64,000 nucleotides of DNA from Thermoleophilia bacterium SCSIO 60948 (lineage in GTDB: Bacteria; Actinomycetota; Thermoleophilia; Solirubrobacterales; 70-9). Where the stretch lies: positions 372,001-436,000 of the forward strand of contig CP053031.1 of assembly GCA_021496505.1 (NCBI GenBank). The letters are read 5' to 3'. Shown piece by piece: positions 14,772 to 21,561 of this stretch (position 1 is its first letter; each line of letters starts with the position of its first letter). The notes beneath the pieces were generated by a model. That model did not search any database, had not been told where the DNA came from, and saw only the letters and a program-made list of their open reading frames with translations. A program made the position numbers and the translations under genes.

Positions 14772-15530
14772 TCACGGTAGGGTCGCCCGGACGATCGCCG
14801 ACCAGGCGGCGCGGTGGACCTGGTGGGTCCGTTCGATCTCGATCCCGGAGAAGCCGCCGGCTTCGAGCGCGGCGCGAAACTCGGCCTCCGTCAGCGCACC
14901 GGCGATGCAGCCCGTCCACTCCCGCATGTCCTTGCGCGTCGCCGGATCCATTCCCTCGTCGGCGATCACGTCGCTCACCGCGAAGCGGCCGCCGGCCCGC
15001 AGCACCCGCGCGGCTTCGCGGAGGACGCGCGGCTTGTCGGCGGAGAGATTGATCACGCAGTTCGAGATCACCACGTCGATGGTGTCGTCCCCGAGCGGCA
15101 GATCCTCGATCGACCCCTTGAGGAACTCGACGTTCTCGATCTTCGCCTCGCGTTGGTTGCGCCGAGCGAGGTCGAGCATCTCATCGGTCATGTCGACCCC
15201 GTACGCCTTGCCCGTCGGGCCGACTCGGCGCGCGGAGAGCAGCACGTCGATACCGCCTCCCGAGCCGAGGTCGAGAACCGTCTCGCCCTCGTGGAGCGCC
15301 GCGACCGCGGTCGGGTTGCCGCAGCCGAGCGACGCGAGGGCCGCTGCCTCGGGCAGTTCCTCGCGCTCGGGAGACGAGTAGAGACCGGAGCCGAAGTCCT
15401 CGCCGCGGATCTCGTCGAGCGTCTCGCTCGCGCAACAGGACCCAGTCGAGGCGGCGCCTCTCGCGGCGGCGGCGTAGCGGTCGCGTACAGCCGCCTGGAT
15501 GTCGCCGTCGGGCGAGGTGCTCACAGCCAT
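14772..15530 (-). CDS. arsM: Arsenite S-adenosylmethionine methyltransferase ArsM
   Basis: 252 aa class I methyltransferase with the SAM site V-L-D-L-G-S-G-G-G-I-D. Cysteines lie where ArsM enzymes bind As(III): a CC pair near residue 32, S-L-G-C-G-N-P near 69, S-N-C-V-I-N-L-S near 150 and W-T-G-C-I-A-G near 200. It methylates arsenite to mono-, di- and trimethyl species. It follows arsR in the same minus-strand transcript with a 10-nt overlap, so it is probably derepressed by arsenite. Confidence 0.93.
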   Translation of the reverse strand: MAVSTSPDGDIQAAVRDRYAAAARGAASTGSCCASETLDEIRGEDFGSGLYSSPEREELPEAAALASLGCGNPTAVAALHEGETVLDLGSGGGIDVLLSARRVGPTGKAYGVDMTDEMLDLARRNQREAKIENVEFLKGSIEDLPLGDDTIDVVISNCVINLSADKPRVLREAARVLRAGGRFAVSDVIADEGMDPATRKDMREWTGCIAGALTEAEFRAALEAGGFSGIEIERTHQVHRAAWSAIVRATLP

Positions 15531-15883
15531 GCGGATAGCTCCTCGAGTGAGTCGGGGATGACGTAGTAGTAGGCCCAGAGCCCCTGGCGCTCGGAGCCGA
15601 CGATGCCGGCTTCGCGCAGGACCTTCAGGTGATGCGAGACGGTCGGCTGCGAGAGGTCGAACAGCGGCACCAGCTCGCAGACGCAGACCTTGCCGGCGTG
15701 CTTTCGCAGGACGTCGACCAACTGCATGCGGATCGGATCGCCGAGGGCCTTCGTGATCCGGGCGAGCGACTCGGCCTTGTCGCGAGCGATGTCCGGATAG
15801 ACGACCGGCTCGCAGCAGACCTCGCCCTTCGCGCGCTTCTGCTTCGGAGCCAGGTCGAGCGTCGTCGTCATCAGGTTGGTCAT
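15521..15883 (-). CDS. arsR: ArsR-family metalloid-responsive repressor
   Basis: 120 aa winged helix with the recognition segment L-S-Q-P-T-V-S-H-H-L-K-V-L-R-E-A-G-I. Candidate As(III) ligands are C-V-C-E-L, at the start of the DNA-binding region as in classical ArsR, and an additional N-terminal C-C-E-P. The ATG at 15883 has GGGGGAG 7 nt upstream. It is transcribed divergently from acr3 across an AT-rich operator region and should control both directions. Confidence 0.93.
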   Translation of the reverse strand: MTNLMTTTLDLAPKQKRAKGEVCCEPVVYPDIARDKAESLARITKALGDPIRMQLVDVLRKHAGKVCVCELVPLFDLSQPTVSHHLKVLREAGIVGSERQGLWAYYYVIPDSLEELSAWL

Positions 15884-15910
15884 CGCGCTCCCCCGCGGTT
15901 CATCGACGTT

Positions 15911-15960
15911 CTTCTATATACGAATATCTATTGAATAGGCATTTGTCAATGGAGTAGTCT
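15911..15960. promoter_or_regulatory. Divergent arsR/acr3 promoter-operator
   Basis: An AT-rich island in a GC-rich genome. For arsR (minus strand) TTGACA (15944-15949) is followed after 17 nt by TATTCG. For acr3 (plus strand) TTGAAT (15931-15936) is followed after 18 nt by TAGTCT (15955-15960), only 7 nt before the GTG start, so acr3 is probably leaderless. ATTGA (15930-15934) and TCAAT (15946-15950) form an inverted repeat over both -35 elements, the best candidate ArsR operator. Confidence 0.65.
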
Positions 15961-15967
15961 CGCGGCC

Positions 15968-17074
15968 GTGACCAGCCGAACGCCCGCCGTGACCTCGCGG
16001 CTCTCGACGCTCGACCGCTACCTGCCGCTGTGGATCGCGCTCGCGATGGCAGCCGGGCTTGCGCTCGGATCGCTCGTCCCCGGCCTCGACTCGGCGCTCG
16101 ACTCGCTCGCCGTCGGCACGATCTCGCTTCCGATCGCGATCGGGCTGCTGCTGATGATGTATCCGGTCCTCGCGAAGGTCCGCTACGAGCGGCTCGCCGA
16201 GCTCCGCAGCGAGCGCCGCCTGTTCGCCGCCTCGATCTTCCTCAACTGGGTCGTCGGCCCGATGCTGATGTTCGCCCTGGCCTGGATCTTCCTCGCCGAC
16301 GAGCCTGCCTTCCGGACCGGCCTGATCATCGTCGGCCTCGCGCGCTGCATCGCGATGGTCCTGATCTGGAACGGGCTCGCCCGCGGTGACAACGACGCCG
16401 CCGCGGTCCTCGTCGCGATCAACTCGCTGTTCCAGATCGCCGCCTACTCGCTGCTCGGCTACTTCTACCTCTCGGTCCTGCCGGGCTGGCTCGGACTCGA
16501 CACCCAGGGCTTCGAGGTGTCGCTGTGGGAGGTGGCGCGAACGGTCCTGATCTTCCTCGGCATCCCGCTGTTCGCCGGCTGGCTCACGCAGCGGATCGGG
16601 ATCAGGCGCCGCGGTCGCGAGTGGTACGAGGGGACGTTCATCCCGCGGATCTCCCCGCTCGCGCTCTACGGCCTGCTGTTCACGATCGTGCTCCTGTTCG
16701 CGCTGCAGGGCGAGGCGATAACGAGCGAGCCGCTCGATGTCGCGAGGATCGCGATCCCGCTGCTCGTCTACTTCCTCGTCATGTTCTTCGCGAGCTTCGG
16801 GCTCGGCCGCGCGATCGGCCTTGCCTACGAGCGGACCGCGTCGCTCGCCTTCACCGCCGCCTCGAACAACTTCGAGCTCGCGATCGCCGTCGCGGTCGGT
16901 GTCTTCGGGGCTACTTCCGGCGAGGCGCTGGCAGGGGTGGTCGGTCCGCTGATCGAGGTCCCGGTCCTCGTCGCGCTCGTCTACGTCTCGCTGTGGCTCG
17001 GGCGCCGCTGGTACGGGCTCGATGCCGATCGCGGCGAGGAGCGGCGAGCCGTCGCGCCGGAGGCGGCGGGGTGA
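15968..17074 (+). CDS. acr3: Arsenite efflux permease of the ACR3 family
   Basis: 368 aa with about ten hydrophobic segments and the ACR3 hallmark G-L-A-R-C-I-A-M-V-L-I-W-N, containing the conserved membrane Cys. It exports As(OH)3 or Sb(OH)3 using the proton-motive force. GTG start with a leaderless-type -10. arsC begins just after it; an alternative arsC start at 17071 would overlap the acr3 stop. It is one of four genes (arsM, arsR, acr3, arsC) giving reduction, export and methylation of arsenic. Confidence 0.95.
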   Translation: MTSRTPAVTSRLSTLDRYLPLWIALAMAAGLALGSLVPGLDSALDSLAVGTISLPIAIGLLLMMYPVLAKVRYERLAELRSERRLFAASIFLNWVVGPMLMFALAWIFLADEPAFRTGLIIVGLARCIAMVLIWNGLARGDNDAAAVLVAINSLFQIAAYSLLGYFYLSVLPGWLGLDTQGFEVSLWEVARTVLIFLGIPLFAGWLTQRIGIRRRGREWYEGTFIPRISPLALYGLLFTIVLLFALQGEAITSEPLDVARIAIPLLVYFLVMFFASFGLGRAIGLAYERTASLAFTAASNNFELAIAVAVGVFGATSGEALAGVVGPLIEVPVLVALVYVSLWLGRRWYGLDADRGEERRAVAPEAAG

Positions 17075-17127
17075 GGGCGAGAGGGGGGTGCGCCCGGCCC
17101 GCGCCCCGCGAGCGCAGGAGGTGCGTG

Positions 17128-17778
17128 TTGGAGCAGGCTGCCGCAGGCTCGCCGCTCAGCGGCGACGACCTGGAACGCGAGGTGGAGGCGCTCGCCGAGG
17201 AGTTCAGCGGGATCTTCGCGCGTGAGACGATCGAGCGCTACGTCACCGACTCGGCGATTCGCGCCGCGGGTGCCCGCGGCACCGCGCTGATGCCGCTGTT
17301 CGTGCGCCGGATGACACATGACCGTCTCGAGGCGGTCGCACAGAGAGAAGGTCTGATGTCGAAGGAAGTCCCCGAGGTCCTGTTCGTCTGCGTCCACAAC
17401 GCCGGGCGCAGCCAGATGGCCGCCGGGCTGCTCGACCGCAGGGCGGCCGGCGCGGTGAACGTCAGAACCGCAGGCTCCGAGCCGGCCGACCGGGTCAATC
17501 CGGTCGCGGTCGAGGCGATGGCCGAGCTCGGGATCGACCTCTCTAAGGAGTTCCCGAAGCCGCTGACCGGCGAGCTCGTCGAGGCGGCGGACGTCGTGAT
17601 CACGATGGGGTGCGGCGACGCTTGCCCGATCTATCCCGGCAAGCGCTACGAGGACTGGAAGCTCGACGACCCGGCGGGCCAGGGGATCGAGCAGGTCCGC
17701 GCGATCCGAGACGAGATCGCCGACAGGGTCGACGCGCTGGTCGCCTCGCTCGGCGCCGAGCGCGCCGAGTCGAGATAG
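17128..17778 (+). CDS. arsC: Arsenate reductase ArsC (LMW-phosphatase fold) with N-terminal helical domain
   Basis: 216 aa. Residues ~80-216 are a low-molecular-weight-phosphatase-type arsenate reductase. It has the P-loop F-V-C-V-H-N-A-G-R-S with Cys88, and a G-C-G-D-A-C-P pair further on as redox cysteines. Residues ~8-70 form an extra helical domain (L-E-R-E-V-E-A-L-A-E-E-F), an extension found in some actinobacterial ArsC proteins. TTG 17128 (or GTG 17125) is preferred because AGGAGG lies at 17116-17121; a longer start at GTG 17071 would overlap acr3. It reduces arsenate to arsenite for Acr3 and ArsM. Confidence 0.9.
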   Translation: MEQAAAGSPLSGDDLEREVEALAEEFSGIFARETIERYVTDSAIRAAGARGTALMPLFVRRMTHDRLEAVAQREGLMSKEVPEVLFVCVHNAGRSQMAAGLLDRRAAGAVNVRTAGSEPADRVNPVAVEAMAELGIDLSKEFPKPLTGELVEAADVVITMGCGDACPIYPGKRYEDWKLDDPAGQGIEQVRAIRDEIADRVDALVASLGAERAESR

Positions 17779-17945
17779 GACGGCGACGCGCGTCGCCGCC
17801 GCGCCGGCGGCCCGGCGGGCCGGGGTCGCCACGCGTCCGTCCGCCCGCCCGCGAAGCGGCTCGCCCCGACCTCGGCGGCGGAGCTTGCAGAGATCGGTTG
17901 TGCGCCACTAGTCTCATCGGGCCGCCCTCCCGGCGCTCCACTCGC

Positions 17946-19328
17946 ATGCGCTCCGACCTCAAGAAGAACCGTCGCCGGATCATCGACGCGGCGGCCCGGT
18001 TGCTCGCCGAGTCGCCGGACGCGACGCTGACCGAGATCGCCTCCGCCGCCGGAGTCGCGCGTTCGACGCTCCACCGTCACTTCCCGAGCCGTGACGCGCT
18101 CGTCGCCGAGGTGGGCGGGCTCGCGCCCGCCGAGCCGAGCGAGCAACACCGCGACTCCGGCCACAGGCCGCCGATCGATCCGGGTCGCCTCGGTCGCGAC
18201 AGGCCGGTCGCGCTCGACGGAATCGACGTCTTCGACGCCGTCCCGGCCGCCGTCCTGCCCGACCAGCTCGTCGCCGAGGCACAGCGTCTGGCGCAGGTCC
18301 CGCTCGGTCTCTACGTCCTCGACATCGACGGCTCGCACCTGCTGCGCATCTCCGGCCCCAGCCGCCTGCCCGAGCGACTCGAGGCGCCGTACGCGATCGG
18401 CCCCGAGCTCGACGCGGACGGGATCGCGGCGATCCGCGAGGGCCTCGCGGCCGAGCGCGGGATGGAGATCGTGCCGCTGTGGCTGCGCGGTCGTGCCGCC
18501 GGGATCTTCCTCACGCTCGGCAAGCCGCGCGCCTCGCTCGCCGAGATGGCGCGCCAGTCGGCCGCGGCGCTGGCGCTCGCCGATCGCCACACCGACGCGT
18601 TCGCCGCGGCGCAACGCCGCAAGCGGCCGCGCGCGGCCGCCGAGATCCAGCAGAGCCTGCTGCCACCGCGGATCGCCCGCGTGACGGGCGGCGAGGTCGC
18701 CGGCAACGTCCTGCCGAGCTACGAGGTCGCCGGCGACTGGTTCGACGTCGTCGAGAACACCGACGGGGTCTGGATCTCGCTCGCCGACGGCCTCGGGCCG
18801 AGCACGCGCTCGGCCGCGAGCAGCGCGATCGCTCTCGGTGCGCTGCGGGCGGCGCGGCGGTCGGGCGCGACGCCGACCGAGGCGCTGATGCTGATGCACA
18901 GCACGCTCAAGCAGATGCCGGGCTCCGGGCCCGAGATGTCGGCCTACATCGCGCGCTGGGACCCGGCGACGTTCTGGCTCGAGGTCGCCGCCACCGGGCA
19001 CGTGGCGCCGGTCATCCTGCGAGCGAGCGGCCCGGAGAAGGTCGGGGACGGCTCTGGTCACGGCCTCGGCGGACGCACGAGCCCGAAGCCGACGCGCACC
19101 GAGGCCCGGCTCGAGCCGGGCGAGCGACTGGTCTGCTTCTCCGACGGCGTGCAGCGACAGGGCGAGGGCCAGGCCGGCCTCGGAGCCGATGGGATCGTCG
19201 CCGCGGCGCTCAGCTCGACGACCGCCAGCGCCGCCGACACGGTCCGGCGGATCCACGCCGCCGCGATCGCCGCGAGCACCGAAGAGCTGAGCGACGACGC
19301 GACCGTCGTCTGCCTCGCGGTCGGCTGA
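17946..19328 (+). CDS. TetR-type HTH fused to a GAF-like region and PP2C (RsbU/SpoIIE) phosphatase
   Basis: 460 aa. Residues 1-50 are a TetR N-terminal HTH (R-R-I-I-D-A-A-A-R-L-L, then L-T-E-I-A-S-A-A-G-V-A-R-S-T-L-H-R-H-F). Residues ~95-205 resemble a GAF-like sensor. A linker A-E-I-Q-Q-S-L-L-P-P near 231, typical of RsbU-like proteins, leads into a PPM phosphatase domain with V-A-G-D-W-F-D-V, L-A-D-G-L-G-P-S, C-F-S-D-G-V and S-D-D-A-T-V-V-C. The usual D-x-x-G-H-G is altered, but the metal-binding Asp residues remain. A DNA-binding phosphatase could link anti-anti-sigma control to direct promoter binding (inference). The TAGTCT 31 nt upstream is a possible -10. An 18-bp palindrome lies at 17781-17798 in the gap. 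Confidence 0.85.
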   Translation: MRSDLKKNRRRIIDAAARLLAESPDATLTEIASAAGVARSTLHRHFPSRDALVAEVGGLAPAEPSEQHRDSGHRPPIDPGRLGRDRPVALDGIDVFDAVPAAVLPDQLVAEAQRLAQVPLGLYVLDIDGSHLLRISGPSRLPERLEAPYAIGPELDADGIAAIREGLAAERGMEIVPLWLRGRAAGIFLTLGKPRASLAEMARQSAAALALADRHTDAFAAAQRRKRPRAAAEIQQSLLPPRIARVTGGEVAGNVLPSYEVAGDWFDVVENTDGVWISLADGLGPSTRSAASSAIALGALRAARRSGATPTEALMLMHSTLKQMPGSGPEMSAYIARWDPATFWLEVAATGHVAPVILRASGPEKVGDGSGHGLGGRTSPKPTRTEARLEPGERLVCFSDGVQRQGEGQAGLGADGIVAAALSSTTASAADTVRRIHAAAIAASTEELSDDATVVCLAVG

Positions 19329-19493: not shown

Positions 19494-19955
19494 ATGACCG
19501 ACACCGAGAAGGACGGCGCGGGCAAGGGCTCGGCGCTTGCGACGAAGGACGATTCCCCGCTCACGAGCGAGCACGGGCGCACCGAGATCGCCGACGGCGT
19601 CGTCGCCAAGATCGCGGGCCTCGCGTCGCGCGAGGTCGGCGGGGTCCACGACCTCGGCGGGAGCGCCGCTCGCAAGATCGGCTCGGTCACGCAGGCGGTC
19701 GGGATCGGCGACGAGCGGACCCAGGGTGTCGCGGTCGAGGTCGGCGAGAAGCAGGCGGCCGTCGACCTGAAGATCGTCATCGACTACGGCGAGTCGATCC
19801 CGCGCGTCGCCGACTCGGTGCGCGCGAACATCAAGAAGCGGATCGAGGCGATCACCGGCCTCGAGGTCACCGAGGTCAACATCGAGGTCAACGACCTCTA
19901 CTTCCCCGGCGACGACGAGGATCAGGGCGCCTCCGAGCGCACCCGCGTCGAGTAG
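19494..19955 (+). CDS. Asp23/Gls24-family envelope stress protein
   Basis: 153 aa with a charged N-terminus followed by the Asp23 domain: I-A-D-G-V-V-A-K-I-A-G-L-A-S-R-E-V-G-G-V, then V-D-L-K-I-V-I-D-Y-G-E-S-I-P and G-L-E-V-T-E-V-N-I-E-V-N-D-L. Asp23 proteins form a cytoplasmic layer tethered to the membrane by AmaP. AGGAG lies 9 nt before the ATG. It is the first gene of a five-gene operon of Asp23 and membrane-anchor proteins. The 165-bp upstream gap holds an AT-rich patch (19383-19396) that is the likely promoter. Confidence 0.9.
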   Translation: MTDTEKDGAGKGSALATKDDSPLTSEHGRTEIADGVVAKIAGLASREVGGVHDLGGSAARKIGSVTQAVGIGDERTQGVAVEVGEKQAAVDLKIVIDYGESIPRVADSVRANIKKRIEAITGLEVTEVNIEVNDLYFPGDDEDQGASERTRVE

Positions 19956-19964
19956 CGCGACCGG

Positions 19965-20345
19965 TTGTCGGACTCGGAGACACAGCAGGCCGAGCTCGGC
20001 GAGCTCATCGAGCTCGGTGGGTCGGACCGCGCCGCCCTCGCGCGCCTCGCACACGAGGCAGCGCTCGCGACGCCCGGCGTCGCGGGGGCTAGTCGCGGGC
20101 CCGGTGCGAGCTACCGGACCCAGACCGGCGGCTACGTCCTCGACGGCGTCTCGGTGATCGTCGCCGCGGACGGCTCCTACCGGGTCGGCCTCTGTCTCGT
20201 GGCGGCGCCGACGCCGCTGCACGACCTCGCGATCGAGATCCGCAGACGGATCGCTCGCGACGTCGCGACGGCCGGGGTCGATGCGCCGGGTGCGGTCGAC
20301 ATCCGCTTCGACGACCTCGCGACCACCTCCGAGAGGGAGCGGTGA
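19965..20345 (+). CDS. Second Asp23/Gls24-like protein
   Basis: 126 aa, shorter and more divergent than its upstream neighbour. It has the pattern A-L-A-T-P-G-V-A-G, Y-V-L-D-G-V-S-V-I-V and L-A-I-E-I-R-R-R-I-A-R-D-V. The TTG start is 9 nt after the preceding stop, and its own stop overlaps the next GTG by 4 nt, indicating translational coupling. It may form heteromers with the first Asp23 protein (inference). Confidence 0.7.
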   Translation: MSDSETQQAELGELIELGGSDRAALARLAHEAALATPGVAGASRGPGASYRTQTGGYVLDGVSVIVAADGSYRVGLCLVAAPTPLHDLAIEIRRRIARDVATAGVDAPGAVDIRFDDLATTSERER

Positions 20346-20956
20346 GCGCGGCGGGCGGCGTCCTCGCGCGCGTCCTCGCGCGGCTGGTCGGCTTCGCGCT
20401 GATGCTCGCGCTCGCGGCCGGCGGACTCGCGCTCGCCGTCTTCTCGATCGAGGGCGGAGACGCGACGCTGAGCCTCGCCGGGCTCGCCGACCGCCTCGGC
20501 CTGCCTGCCGCCCGCGACGAGGTCGCCGCGTTCCTCGCGCGGTTGACCGATGGGGGAGGGGTCGATGTCGGCGCGCTCGTCGCCGGCGTCGCGGCCGTGC
20601 TGTTCGGGCTGCTGATCGCCTTCGGCGCTCTCAGCCGCGCTCGAGAGCGCGAGTTCGGGGTCGAGCTCGAAGGCGGCGGAGACTCGAGCGCTGATGCGAC
20701 CTCGAAAGCGGCGGCCCAGGCCGCGGAGCTGCGCGCCGCGACCACCTCCGGCGTGAGTGCCGTCAAGGCCAAGCCCAGGCTCTCGAAGCGCAGGCGCCGC
20801 CTCGACGTCGCGCTCATTACCACCGCCGATGCCGACGCCGAGACGGTCCGCGAGCGCGCCGAAGTGGAGCTCGAGCCGCTCGGCCGCGAGCTCGGAGCCG
20901 CGATCAGGGTTCGCGCCAAGGCCGGCGACGAGCCGGCGAAGACGAGGGTCCGGTGA
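20342..20956 (+). CDS. AmaP-like membrane anchor protein
   Basis: 204 aa with two transmembrane helices (residues ~12-33 and ~77-97) joined by an extracytoplasmic loop. A basic cytoplasmic tail follows, with a domain (L-D-V-A-L-I-T-T-A-D-A-D-A-E-T-V) like that of alkaline-shock membrane anchors. Its place between Asp23 genes and a DUF2273-like gene supports an anchoring role. GTG start, with 4-nt overlaps at both ends. Confidence 0.7.
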   Translation: MSAAGGVLARVLARLVGFALMLALAAGGLALAVFSIEGGDATLSLAGLADRLGLPAARDEVAAFLARLTDGGGVDVGALVAGVAAVLFGLLIAFGALSRAREREFGVELEGGGDSSADATSKAAAQAAELRAATTSGVSAVKAKPRLSKRRRRLDVALITTADADAETVRERAEVELEPLGRELGAAIRVRAKAGDEPAKTRVR

Positions 20957-21561
20957 GGGCGCGGCGGCGGCTTCGCGCCGAGCGCCCGGCGAGCCTGTGG
21001 CCGAGCCGCCTGCTCGCGCTGCTCGCCGCGGCGGTGCTCGTCTGGTACGGCCTGATGGTCGCGCTGCTCGCTGCCGGGCTCGACCCTGCGCGCGTCGATT
21101 CGCTGAGCGGCCTGCTGACCGGATTCGATCGGCTCTCGAGCCTCACGGCCACCGATGTCGACGGAGCCGCGCGAGCGATCGTCGCGGCGGCGGGCGCGGT
21201 GATGTTCCTGGTCTTCGCGTTCCTCGTCAGGCGCTCGCTCCCGCGCCCCTACGTCGCCCGCCGCTCCATCGATCTGAGCGCCGCGGAGGGCTCGACCCCG
21301 GGCGCGCTCAGCGTCGGCCCGCGGGCGATCGAGCGCGCCGCCGAGCGCGCCGCGCGCCGCGGTGGTGGCGTGAGCGGTGCGGTCGCCCGCTCGGCACCGG
21401 GTCGCGTCGAGCTCGACGTCGAGCTCAGCGAGCCGTCGGATCTCCCGGCACAGCTCCGCGACGTCGAGGAGCGCTACGCGGCCGACCTCGATCGGCTCGG
21501 CCTACCGAAGCTCCCGTTGGACATCACGCTCGTGGCTGTGAAGGGGCGTCACGCGCGTTGA
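20953..21561 (+). CDS. Second AmaP/DUF6286-like membrane protein
   Basis: 202 aa with the same plan as the previous gene: basic N-terminus, a helix at ~18-40, a second at ~75-95, and a cytoplasmic domain containing R-V-E-L-D-V-E-L and a basic end. The two proteins are probably paralogues whose tails have diverged. GTG start overlapping the upstream stop by 4 nt. Confidence 0.65.
   Translation: MRARRRLRAERPASLWPSRLLALLAAAVLVWYGLMVALLAAGLDPARVDSLSGLLTGFDRLSSLTATDVDGAARAIVAAAGAVMFLVFAFLVRRSLPRPYVARRSIDLSAAEGSTPGALSVGPRAIERAAERAARRGGGVSGAVARSAPGRVELDVELSEPSDLPAQLRDVEERYAADLDRLGLPKLPLDITLVAVKGRHAR

What the first reader, a model, noticed from the sequence alone, without database searches (positions are those of the whole stretch)
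17946..19328. TetR DNA-binding domain fused to a GAF-like region and PP2C phosphatase
A TetR HTH (residues 1-50) is joined through a GAF-like region to an RsbU-like PPM phosphatase. RsbU-type phosphatases normally act on anti-anti-sigma factors and have no HTH. One protein could bind DNA in response to a ligand and also dephosphorylate a regulator. The phosphatase motif around D-G-L-G-P-S is divergent. No anti-sigma genes are adjacent.
Basis: partly seen in the sequence, partly recalled or inferred. Interest (0 to 1): 0.55.

Follow-up and report, generated by a model that had tools for sequence, protein, structure and literature searches.

The report
DNA-binding phosphatase: TetR-GAF-PPM fusion
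The gene really encodes one protein that joins a DNA-binding head, a sensor-like middle and a stress-signalling phosphatase, and relatives across one bacterial class share this design, so a single protein may both bind DNA near its own gene and help switch on a stress programme.

Summary
Window 17946-19328 encodes a 460-aa protein with a TetR-type HTH (PF00440, 8e-12), a GAF-like middle (by fold only) and an RsbU/SpoIIE-type PPM phosphatase (PF07228, 1e-24) that keeps its metal-binding Asp residues. It is a conserved fusion: a 69% paralogue lies elsewhere in the genome, and by my count 50 of 232 genomes of the order carry full-length relatives. A tree puts all HTH-bearing forms in one group (93/88), so the fusion probably arose once. 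In relatives the genes often have an operator-like palindrome upstream (AActGRGACAnnnTGTCYCagTT and longer variants; held-out support), and often sit beside stress or envelope genes (YihY, DUF2382, DUF3618, DUF4235) and sometimes a SigB/F-type sigma gene. Best reading: a general-stress phosphatase that is also its own transcription regulator. The window copy lacks a recognisable operator; its paralogue has one. DNA binding, ligand, substrate and coupling are untested. I call it a new variant of a known kind: the stress PPM phosphatases in the paper I consulted carry sensor domains, not a DNA-binding domain.

The parts
17946..19328 (+). TetR-HTH / GAF-like / PPM phosphatase fusion gene, 460 aa
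17967..18116 (+). TetR-type helix-turn-helix (residues 8-57; Pfam match 12-56)
   Evidence: PF00440 8.3e-12; LfrR 2v57 superposes at 0.8 A over 52 columns; conserved over 33 aligned rows
18117..18254 (+). variable linker (residues 58-103), mean 30% identity to relatives (measured on 57-103)
   Evidence: pLDDT under 50 at 59-103
18255..18584 (+). GAF-like domain (residues 104-213)
   Evidence: Foldseek 2vks/2vjw/3ci6; family profile overlaps a sub-threshold Pfam GAF_3 match in relative L149; no Pfam GAF match in the query itself
18585..18671 (+). helical linker into the phosphatase (residues 214-242, ..AAEIQQSLLPPR), best conserved part
   Evidence: 64% mean identity; model helices 199-224 and 228-237
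18672..19322 (+). PPM/SpoIIE-type serine phosphatase domain (residues 243-459)
   Evidence: PF07228 1.4e-24 on 273-458; SpoIIE 3t9q is the best Foldseek match
18735..18737 (+). expected metal-ligand Asp D264 (GDWFD)
   Evidence: invariant in 33 of 33 rows; aligned to Rv1364c
18786..18788 (+). expected metal-ligand Asp D281 (ADGLG)
   Evidence: invariant in 33 of 33 rows; aligned to Rv1364c
19143..19145 (+). expected metal-ligand Asp D400 (SDG)
   Evidence: at least 90% conserved; aligned to Rv1364c
19296..19298 (+). expected metal-ligand Asp D451 (DDAT)
   Evidence: invariant in 33 of 33 rows
17779..17945 (.). 167-bp upstream gap after the arsenate-reductase-like gene; no convincing family operator
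   Evidence: best two-half-site match scores 4.9, reached by 117 of 308 control upstreams
19494..19955 (+). Asp23-family (alkaline shock / cell envelope) gene downstream
   Evidence: PF03780 1.8e-28; genes related to the window ORFs 20342-20956 and 20953-21561 also lie near the fusion gene in relative L185

Best explanation
The gene encodes a single-chain regulator: a PPM phosphatase of the RsbU/SpoIIE kind whose GAF-like sensor carries a TetR-type DNA-binding head. Shown: the domain make-up, kept catalytic Asp residues, conservation of the fusion, one HTH-bearing group in the tree, a recurrent palindromic operator candidate upstream of relatives, and stress/envelope/SigB-type neighbours in relatives. 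Inferred: the protein sits as a dimer on the operator and represses (or tunes) its own gene and the divergent stress operon. A ligand or stress sensed by the GAF-like domain changes the helix that enters the phosphatase, releases DNA and switches on dephosphorylation of an anti-anti-sigma (STAS) protein, which frees a SigB/F-type sigma factor. The window copy is a faster-evolving duplicate that has kept the HTH but seems to have lost the local operator; it may act at its paralogue's promoter or elsewhere.
For: Domains. Asp residues. Paralogue 69%. Distribution: 50 of 232 order genomes by my count of the rows; two genomes (G330, G357) outside the order have full-length matches among 399 class genomes. 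Tree: a 49-row group holding all 44 type A and 4 type B (plus one frame-broken B) at 93/88. Half-site G[AG]GACA in 27 of 45 family upstreams against 27 of 308 controls, Fisher 3.5e-14. The dyad G[AG]GAC-N5-GTC[CT]C occurs 6 times in the 45 family upstreams and 0 times in the 308 controls. Held-out halves: 69 of 180 test upstreams above the control 1% level, about 2 expected. A second, two-half-site model from 7 relatives picks 22 of 33 others above the control 1% level, and L159, also not used to build it. Ten HTH-less relatives: none above the control maximum; HTH-bearing type B: 2 of 4. G073, not used for training, has two exact palindromes within 110 bp upstream of its gene. YihY cluster in 13 of 40 neighbourhoods, about 0.5 expected from 91 matches in 18 genomes of about 88 Mb. 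SigB/F/G-type sigma in 7 of 40, three of them directly or one gene downstream. STAS and HATPase_c_2 genes in the same genome. The recognition helix is the same in window copy and paralogue, RSTLHRHF.
Against: The window promoter lacks the operator, and the 3-mismatch search of the genome finds no excess (63 against 73 for the reversed pattern). Palindromic EM finds GC-rich motifs in control sets with higher likelihood than the family motif; one of eight half-splits failed (0 of 22) and two others converged on different words. No STAS or anti-sigma gene is adjacent in the window; 33 of 40 neighbourhoods have no SigB-type gene. Evidence for SigB-type -10 boxes is weak (10 of 45 against 32 of 308, p 0.026). 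The structure model is of low confidence (mean pLDDT 61). Nothing here tests DNA binding, phosphatase activity or coupling.
Confidence: 0.5

Rival explanations
1. The HTH is a DNA tether or autoregulator only, and the phosphatase works independently on another substrate (for example of a Hanks-type kinase) rather than on a STAS protein.
For: No STAS/anti-sigma gene adjacent in the window; SigB-type genes in only 7 of 40 neighbourhoods.
Against: SpoIIE/RsbU-type domain (Foldseek ranks SpoIIE first); SigB/F/G-type sigma directly or one gene downstream in three relatives; partner-switching genes in the genome.
Confidence: 0.2
2. The HTH no longer binds DNA; it serves as a dimerisation or docking module, and the upstream palindrome is bound by another regulator or a sigma factor.
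For: The window copy has no local operator; that the fused HTH binds the palindrome is not tested.
Against: HTH as conserved as the catalytic domain, with R39, R44 and F46 invariant in 33 of 33 rows; palindrome present in many HTH-bearing members with unlike neighbours and in none of ten HTH-less ones.
Confidence: 0.2
3. The N-terminal HTH is not translated: the real start lies downstream, giving a plain GAF-PPM phosphatase.
For: No obvious ribosome-binding site before ATG 17946 (read by eye); one relative lacks a common start codon before its HTH.
Against: HTH conserved at protein level over 33 aligned rows; dN/dS in the HTH below 0.5 against three relatives, 0.63 against a fourth; a second architecture, TetR-PAS-GAF-PPM, keeps it as well.
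Confidence: 0.03

Closest known systems
RsbU / RsbP / RsbZ general-stress PPM phosphatases (Bacillus, Clostridioides)
   Same: SpoIIE-type PPM domain joined by a helical linker to an N-terminal sensor; GAF is a known sensor in RsbZ (PMC12143880, passages)
   Different: The passages read list PAS, response-receiver, GAF and HAMP sensor domains, no HTH; 'helix-turn-helix' has 0 occurrences in that paper
Rv1364c (M. tuberculosis), PDB 3ke6
   Same: Best solved-structure relative of the phosphatase domain (4.2e-17 with the family profile)
   Different: Rv1364c has PAS, anti-sigma and anti-anti-sigma domains in one chain (PMC12143880 passage); ours has an HTH instead
TetR-family repressors such as LfrR (2v57)
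   Same: HTH 48% identical, 0.8 A over 52 columns; upstream palindromes are typical of TetR operators (general knowledge)
   Different: The all-helical TetR ligand domain is absent; a GAF-like domain and a phosphatase follow
IclR-family regulators (2g7u, 7dqb)
   Same: HTH followed by a GAF-like effector domain (general knowledge); they appear among the Foldseek matches
   Different: Winged HTH, not TetR; no phosphatase

Membership tests
RsbU/SpoIIE-type PPM phosphatase | PF07228 domain above curated cut-off | tested here: met
   87.6 bits against 25
RsbU/SpoIIE-type PPM phosphatase | metal-binding Asp residues of the PPM site | tested here: met
   D264, D281, D400, D451 kept; their role as ligands is recalled
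RsbU/SpoIIE-type PPM phosphatase | dephosphorylates a STAS anti-anti-sigma protein | not testable with these tools
   STAS and HATPase_c_2 genes exist in the genome but not next to the gene
RsbU/SpoIIE-type PPM phosphatase | genetic link to an alternative sigma factor | tested here: inconclusive
   SigB/F/G-type gene in 7 of 40 neighbourhoods of the family, three directly or one gene downstream; none beside the window copy
TetR family regulator | TetR_N HTH | tested here: met
   PF00440 45.1 bits against 24
TetR family regulator | C-terminal all-helical TetR ligand/dimerisation domain | tested here: not met
   no such match; GAF-like fold instead; hence not filed as a TetR-family member, only as carrying its HTH
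TetR family regulator | palindromic operator at its own promoter | tested here: inconclusive
   present in many relatives and in the paralogue, absent at the window gene
GAF domain proteins | match to a GAF model or fold | tested here: inconclusive
   no Pfam GAF match in the query; fold match 2vks E 2.3e-3 on a low-confidence model

The most novel reading that the evidence does not exclude
A class of one-protein stress switches in Thermoleophilia: a ligand-gated phosphatase that itself sits on DNA as the repressor of its own gene and of a divergent envelope-stress operon, so that one signal both derepresses the operon and frees a SigB/F-type sigma factor by partner switching.
Probability: 0.35. 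Interest if true: 0.78.

Novelty: new variant of a known kind. Interest (0 to 1): 0.6.

Why it matters
Known PPM stress phosphatases act on protein partners and leave promoter recognition to the sigma factor. A family that fuses such a phosphatase to a DNA-binding head, with a recurrent candidate operator upstream of its own genes, would join repressor-type and partner-switching control in one molecule and make their coupling directly testable. It also gives an entry point to stress regulation in Thermoleophilia.

Tried and rejected
Unsupervised palindromic motif likelihood: rejected as evidence because control sets gave higher values from GC-rich motifs (118 to 142 against 101 at width 19); only held-out tests are relied on. 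SigB-type -10 boxes (GGGTA[CT]): weak, p 0.026, not relied on. A regulon in the window's own genome: 63 matches at up to 3 mismatches against 73 for the reversed pattern, and none at 0 mismatches, so none is claimed. Exact palindromes over the order: 49 sites in 42 of 232 genomes against 21 for the reversed pattern, by my count; 4 of the 49 (two in G073, one each in G181 and G222) lie just upstream of a family gene, so most lie elsewhere and may be chance. Structure: two AlphaFold jobs with only 4 sequences gave mean pLDDT 61 and 59; the GAF call rests on weak fold matches. Rows dropped: 36 full-length ORFs reduced to 32 distinct; 49 upstreams to 45 distinct; 4 of 40 neighbourhoods (L160, L162, L179, L193) lost the family gene in my simple gene caller, so 36 appear in the gene-order table; tree rows not reaching profile position 440, starting after 215, shorter than 240 aa or duplicated were left out, 78 kept. 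Some of the 18 genomes used for the YihY density had been seen to carry YihY nearby. Outside the class, none of the matches listed from a 396-genome phylum sample begins before profile position 74, but the list was cut and only up to 4 candidates per genome were scored.

Full report
What is there. The ORF at 17946-19328 (+) encodes 460 residues. Pfam finds TetR_N on residues 12-56 (8.3e-12) and SpoIIE on 273-458 (1.4e-24), both well over their cut-offs, and no GAF family. Solved-structure searches give TetR repressors for the head and the Rv1364c phosphatase for the tail. A model from four sequences is of low confidence (mean pLDDT 61; HTH blocks 72-87), yet Foldseek returns SpoIIE first, GAF domains of DevS at E 2.3e-3, and LfrR's HTH at 0.8 A over 52 columns. 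Four Asp residues expected to bind the metals are present: D264, D281 and D451 are invariant in 33 of 33 aligned rows, D400 in at least 90%. Their role as metal ligands is general knowledge of PPM phosphatases.

Is the fusion real? Yes. The same genome has a second full-length copy, 69% identical. In 232 genomes of the order, 66 have a match at 1e-30 or better; by my count of the listed rows 50 have at least one copy spanning residue 1 or 2 to 437 or beyond. Two class genomes outside the order, G330 and G357, also have full-length copies among 399 searched. In a 396-genome phylum sample no listed match outside the class reaches the HTH, with the limits of that list. Against 32 distinct relatives the HTH averages 52% identity, the GAF-like part 53%, the phosphatase 46%, the linker 30%.

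Architectures and origin. Besides the query type there are longer forms TetR-(about 120 aa)-PAS-GAF-PPM in four fetched loci (L067-L070; Pfam reports TetR_N and SpoIIE over cut-off in all four, PAS_4 over cut-off in three, and only a sub-threshold PAS_7 match in L068), a frame-broken one in G032, HTH-less GAF-PPM forms, and one REC-GGDEF-GAF-PPM frame (L078). A tree of 78 GAF-PPM cores places all 44 query-type and 4 long-type rows, with the broken G032 row, in one group (93/88); the other HTH-less forms branch outside it. This favours one fusion event. The window copy and its genome paralogue are sisters (100/95), the window branch being longer (0.29 against 0.15).

Neighbourhoods. In 40 neighbourhoods (39 fetched plus the window), a YihY/BrkB gene is found in 13, DUF3618 in 13, a mixed DUF2382/PRC and holin cluster in 17, DUF4235 in 6, mostly divergent from the fusion gene. 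YihY matches number 91 in 18 such genomes of about 88 Mb, so about 0.5 of 40 would be expected. A SigB/SigF/SigG-type sigma gene (TIGR02980 over cut-off for the G198 copy) occurs in 7 of 40: directly downstream in G193 and G194, and after one DUF2382 gene in G198. In the window the neighbours are arsenic-related ORFs upstream (read by eye) and an Asp23/AmaP-like envelope group downstream; relatives of two window genes of that group lie near the fusion gene in L185. The genome has two STAS matches and several HATPase_c_2 matches elsewhere; one STAS and one HATPase_c_2 gene are adjacent at about 1582 kb, the STAS part reading ..FVDSS.., whose phosphoserine role I recall and did not test.

Operator. 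G[AG]GACA is found in 27 of 45 family upstream regions against 27 of 308 upstreams of other genes in the same loci (Fisher 3.5e-14). Motif search gives AactGggACAnnnTGTccCagtT. In sample, 23 of 45 upstreams beat all 308 controls. In held-out halves 69 of 180 exceed the control 1% level, with one failed split (0 of 22) and two splits that found other words; control-trained motifs gave 1 of 69. A two-half-site model from seven relatives, whose sites I chose by eye, finds L159 and 22 of 33 other members above the control 1% level. Ten HTH-less relatives have no site above the control maximum; two of four long forms do. G073, not used in training, carries two exact palindromes within 110 bp of its gene. 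The window gene has none (4.9, reached by 117 of 308 controls), nor do the related copies L158, L160 and L047 stand out (54, 91 and 63 of 308 controls as good), while the paralogue has one (19.8, 1 of 308). The recognition helix RSTLHRHF is the same in window copy and paralogue.

How it most likely works. The GAF-like domain and the conserved AAEIQQSLLPPR helix resemble the sensor and linker through which RsbU-like phosphatases are switched (mechanism from PMC12143880, passages). I infer that a dimer binds the upstream palindrome through the HTH, that a signal in the GAF-like domain alters both DNA binding and phosphatase state, and that the substrate is a STAS anti-anti-sigma protein. Only anatomy, conservation, operator candidates and gene context are shown.

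What is known. The passages read of a 2025 study of general-stress phosphatases list PAS, receiver, GAF and HAMP sensors (PMC12143880). Searches combining TetR with SpoIIE, PP2C, RsbU, one-component, GAF domain, fusion or Solirubrobacter returned no paper that, from its listing, describes such a fusion; the library holds only open-licence papers, and the listed papers were not read. I file it as a new variant of the RsbU/SpoIIE-type phosphatase, and not as a TetR-family member, because the TetR ligand domain is missing.

Noticed in passing
L067-L070 (G223, G214, G215, G211): Longer relatives with TetR HTH, a helical stretch, PAS, GAF-like and PPM domains in one chain of about 700 residues.
   Followed up: partly
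L078:2275-4827: A frame with receiver, GGDEF, GAF-like and PPM domains: a possible diguanylate cyclase-phosphatase fusion.
   Followed up: partly
L011 (G032:C5): The TetR-PAS-GAF-PPM gene appears broken by a frame change between the PAS and GAF-like parts; a near relative (L070) is intact.
   Followed up: no
window 14772-17778: Arsenic-related ORFs beside the gene: methyltransferase-like, ArsR-like, ACR3-like and arsenate-reductase-like; the last has an N-terminal extension before the reductase part (read by eye).
   Followed up: no
window 19494-21561: Asp23-family gene followed by small membrane-protein ORFs, one weakly AmaP-like; Asp23 is a known stress/envelope family.
   Followed up: partly
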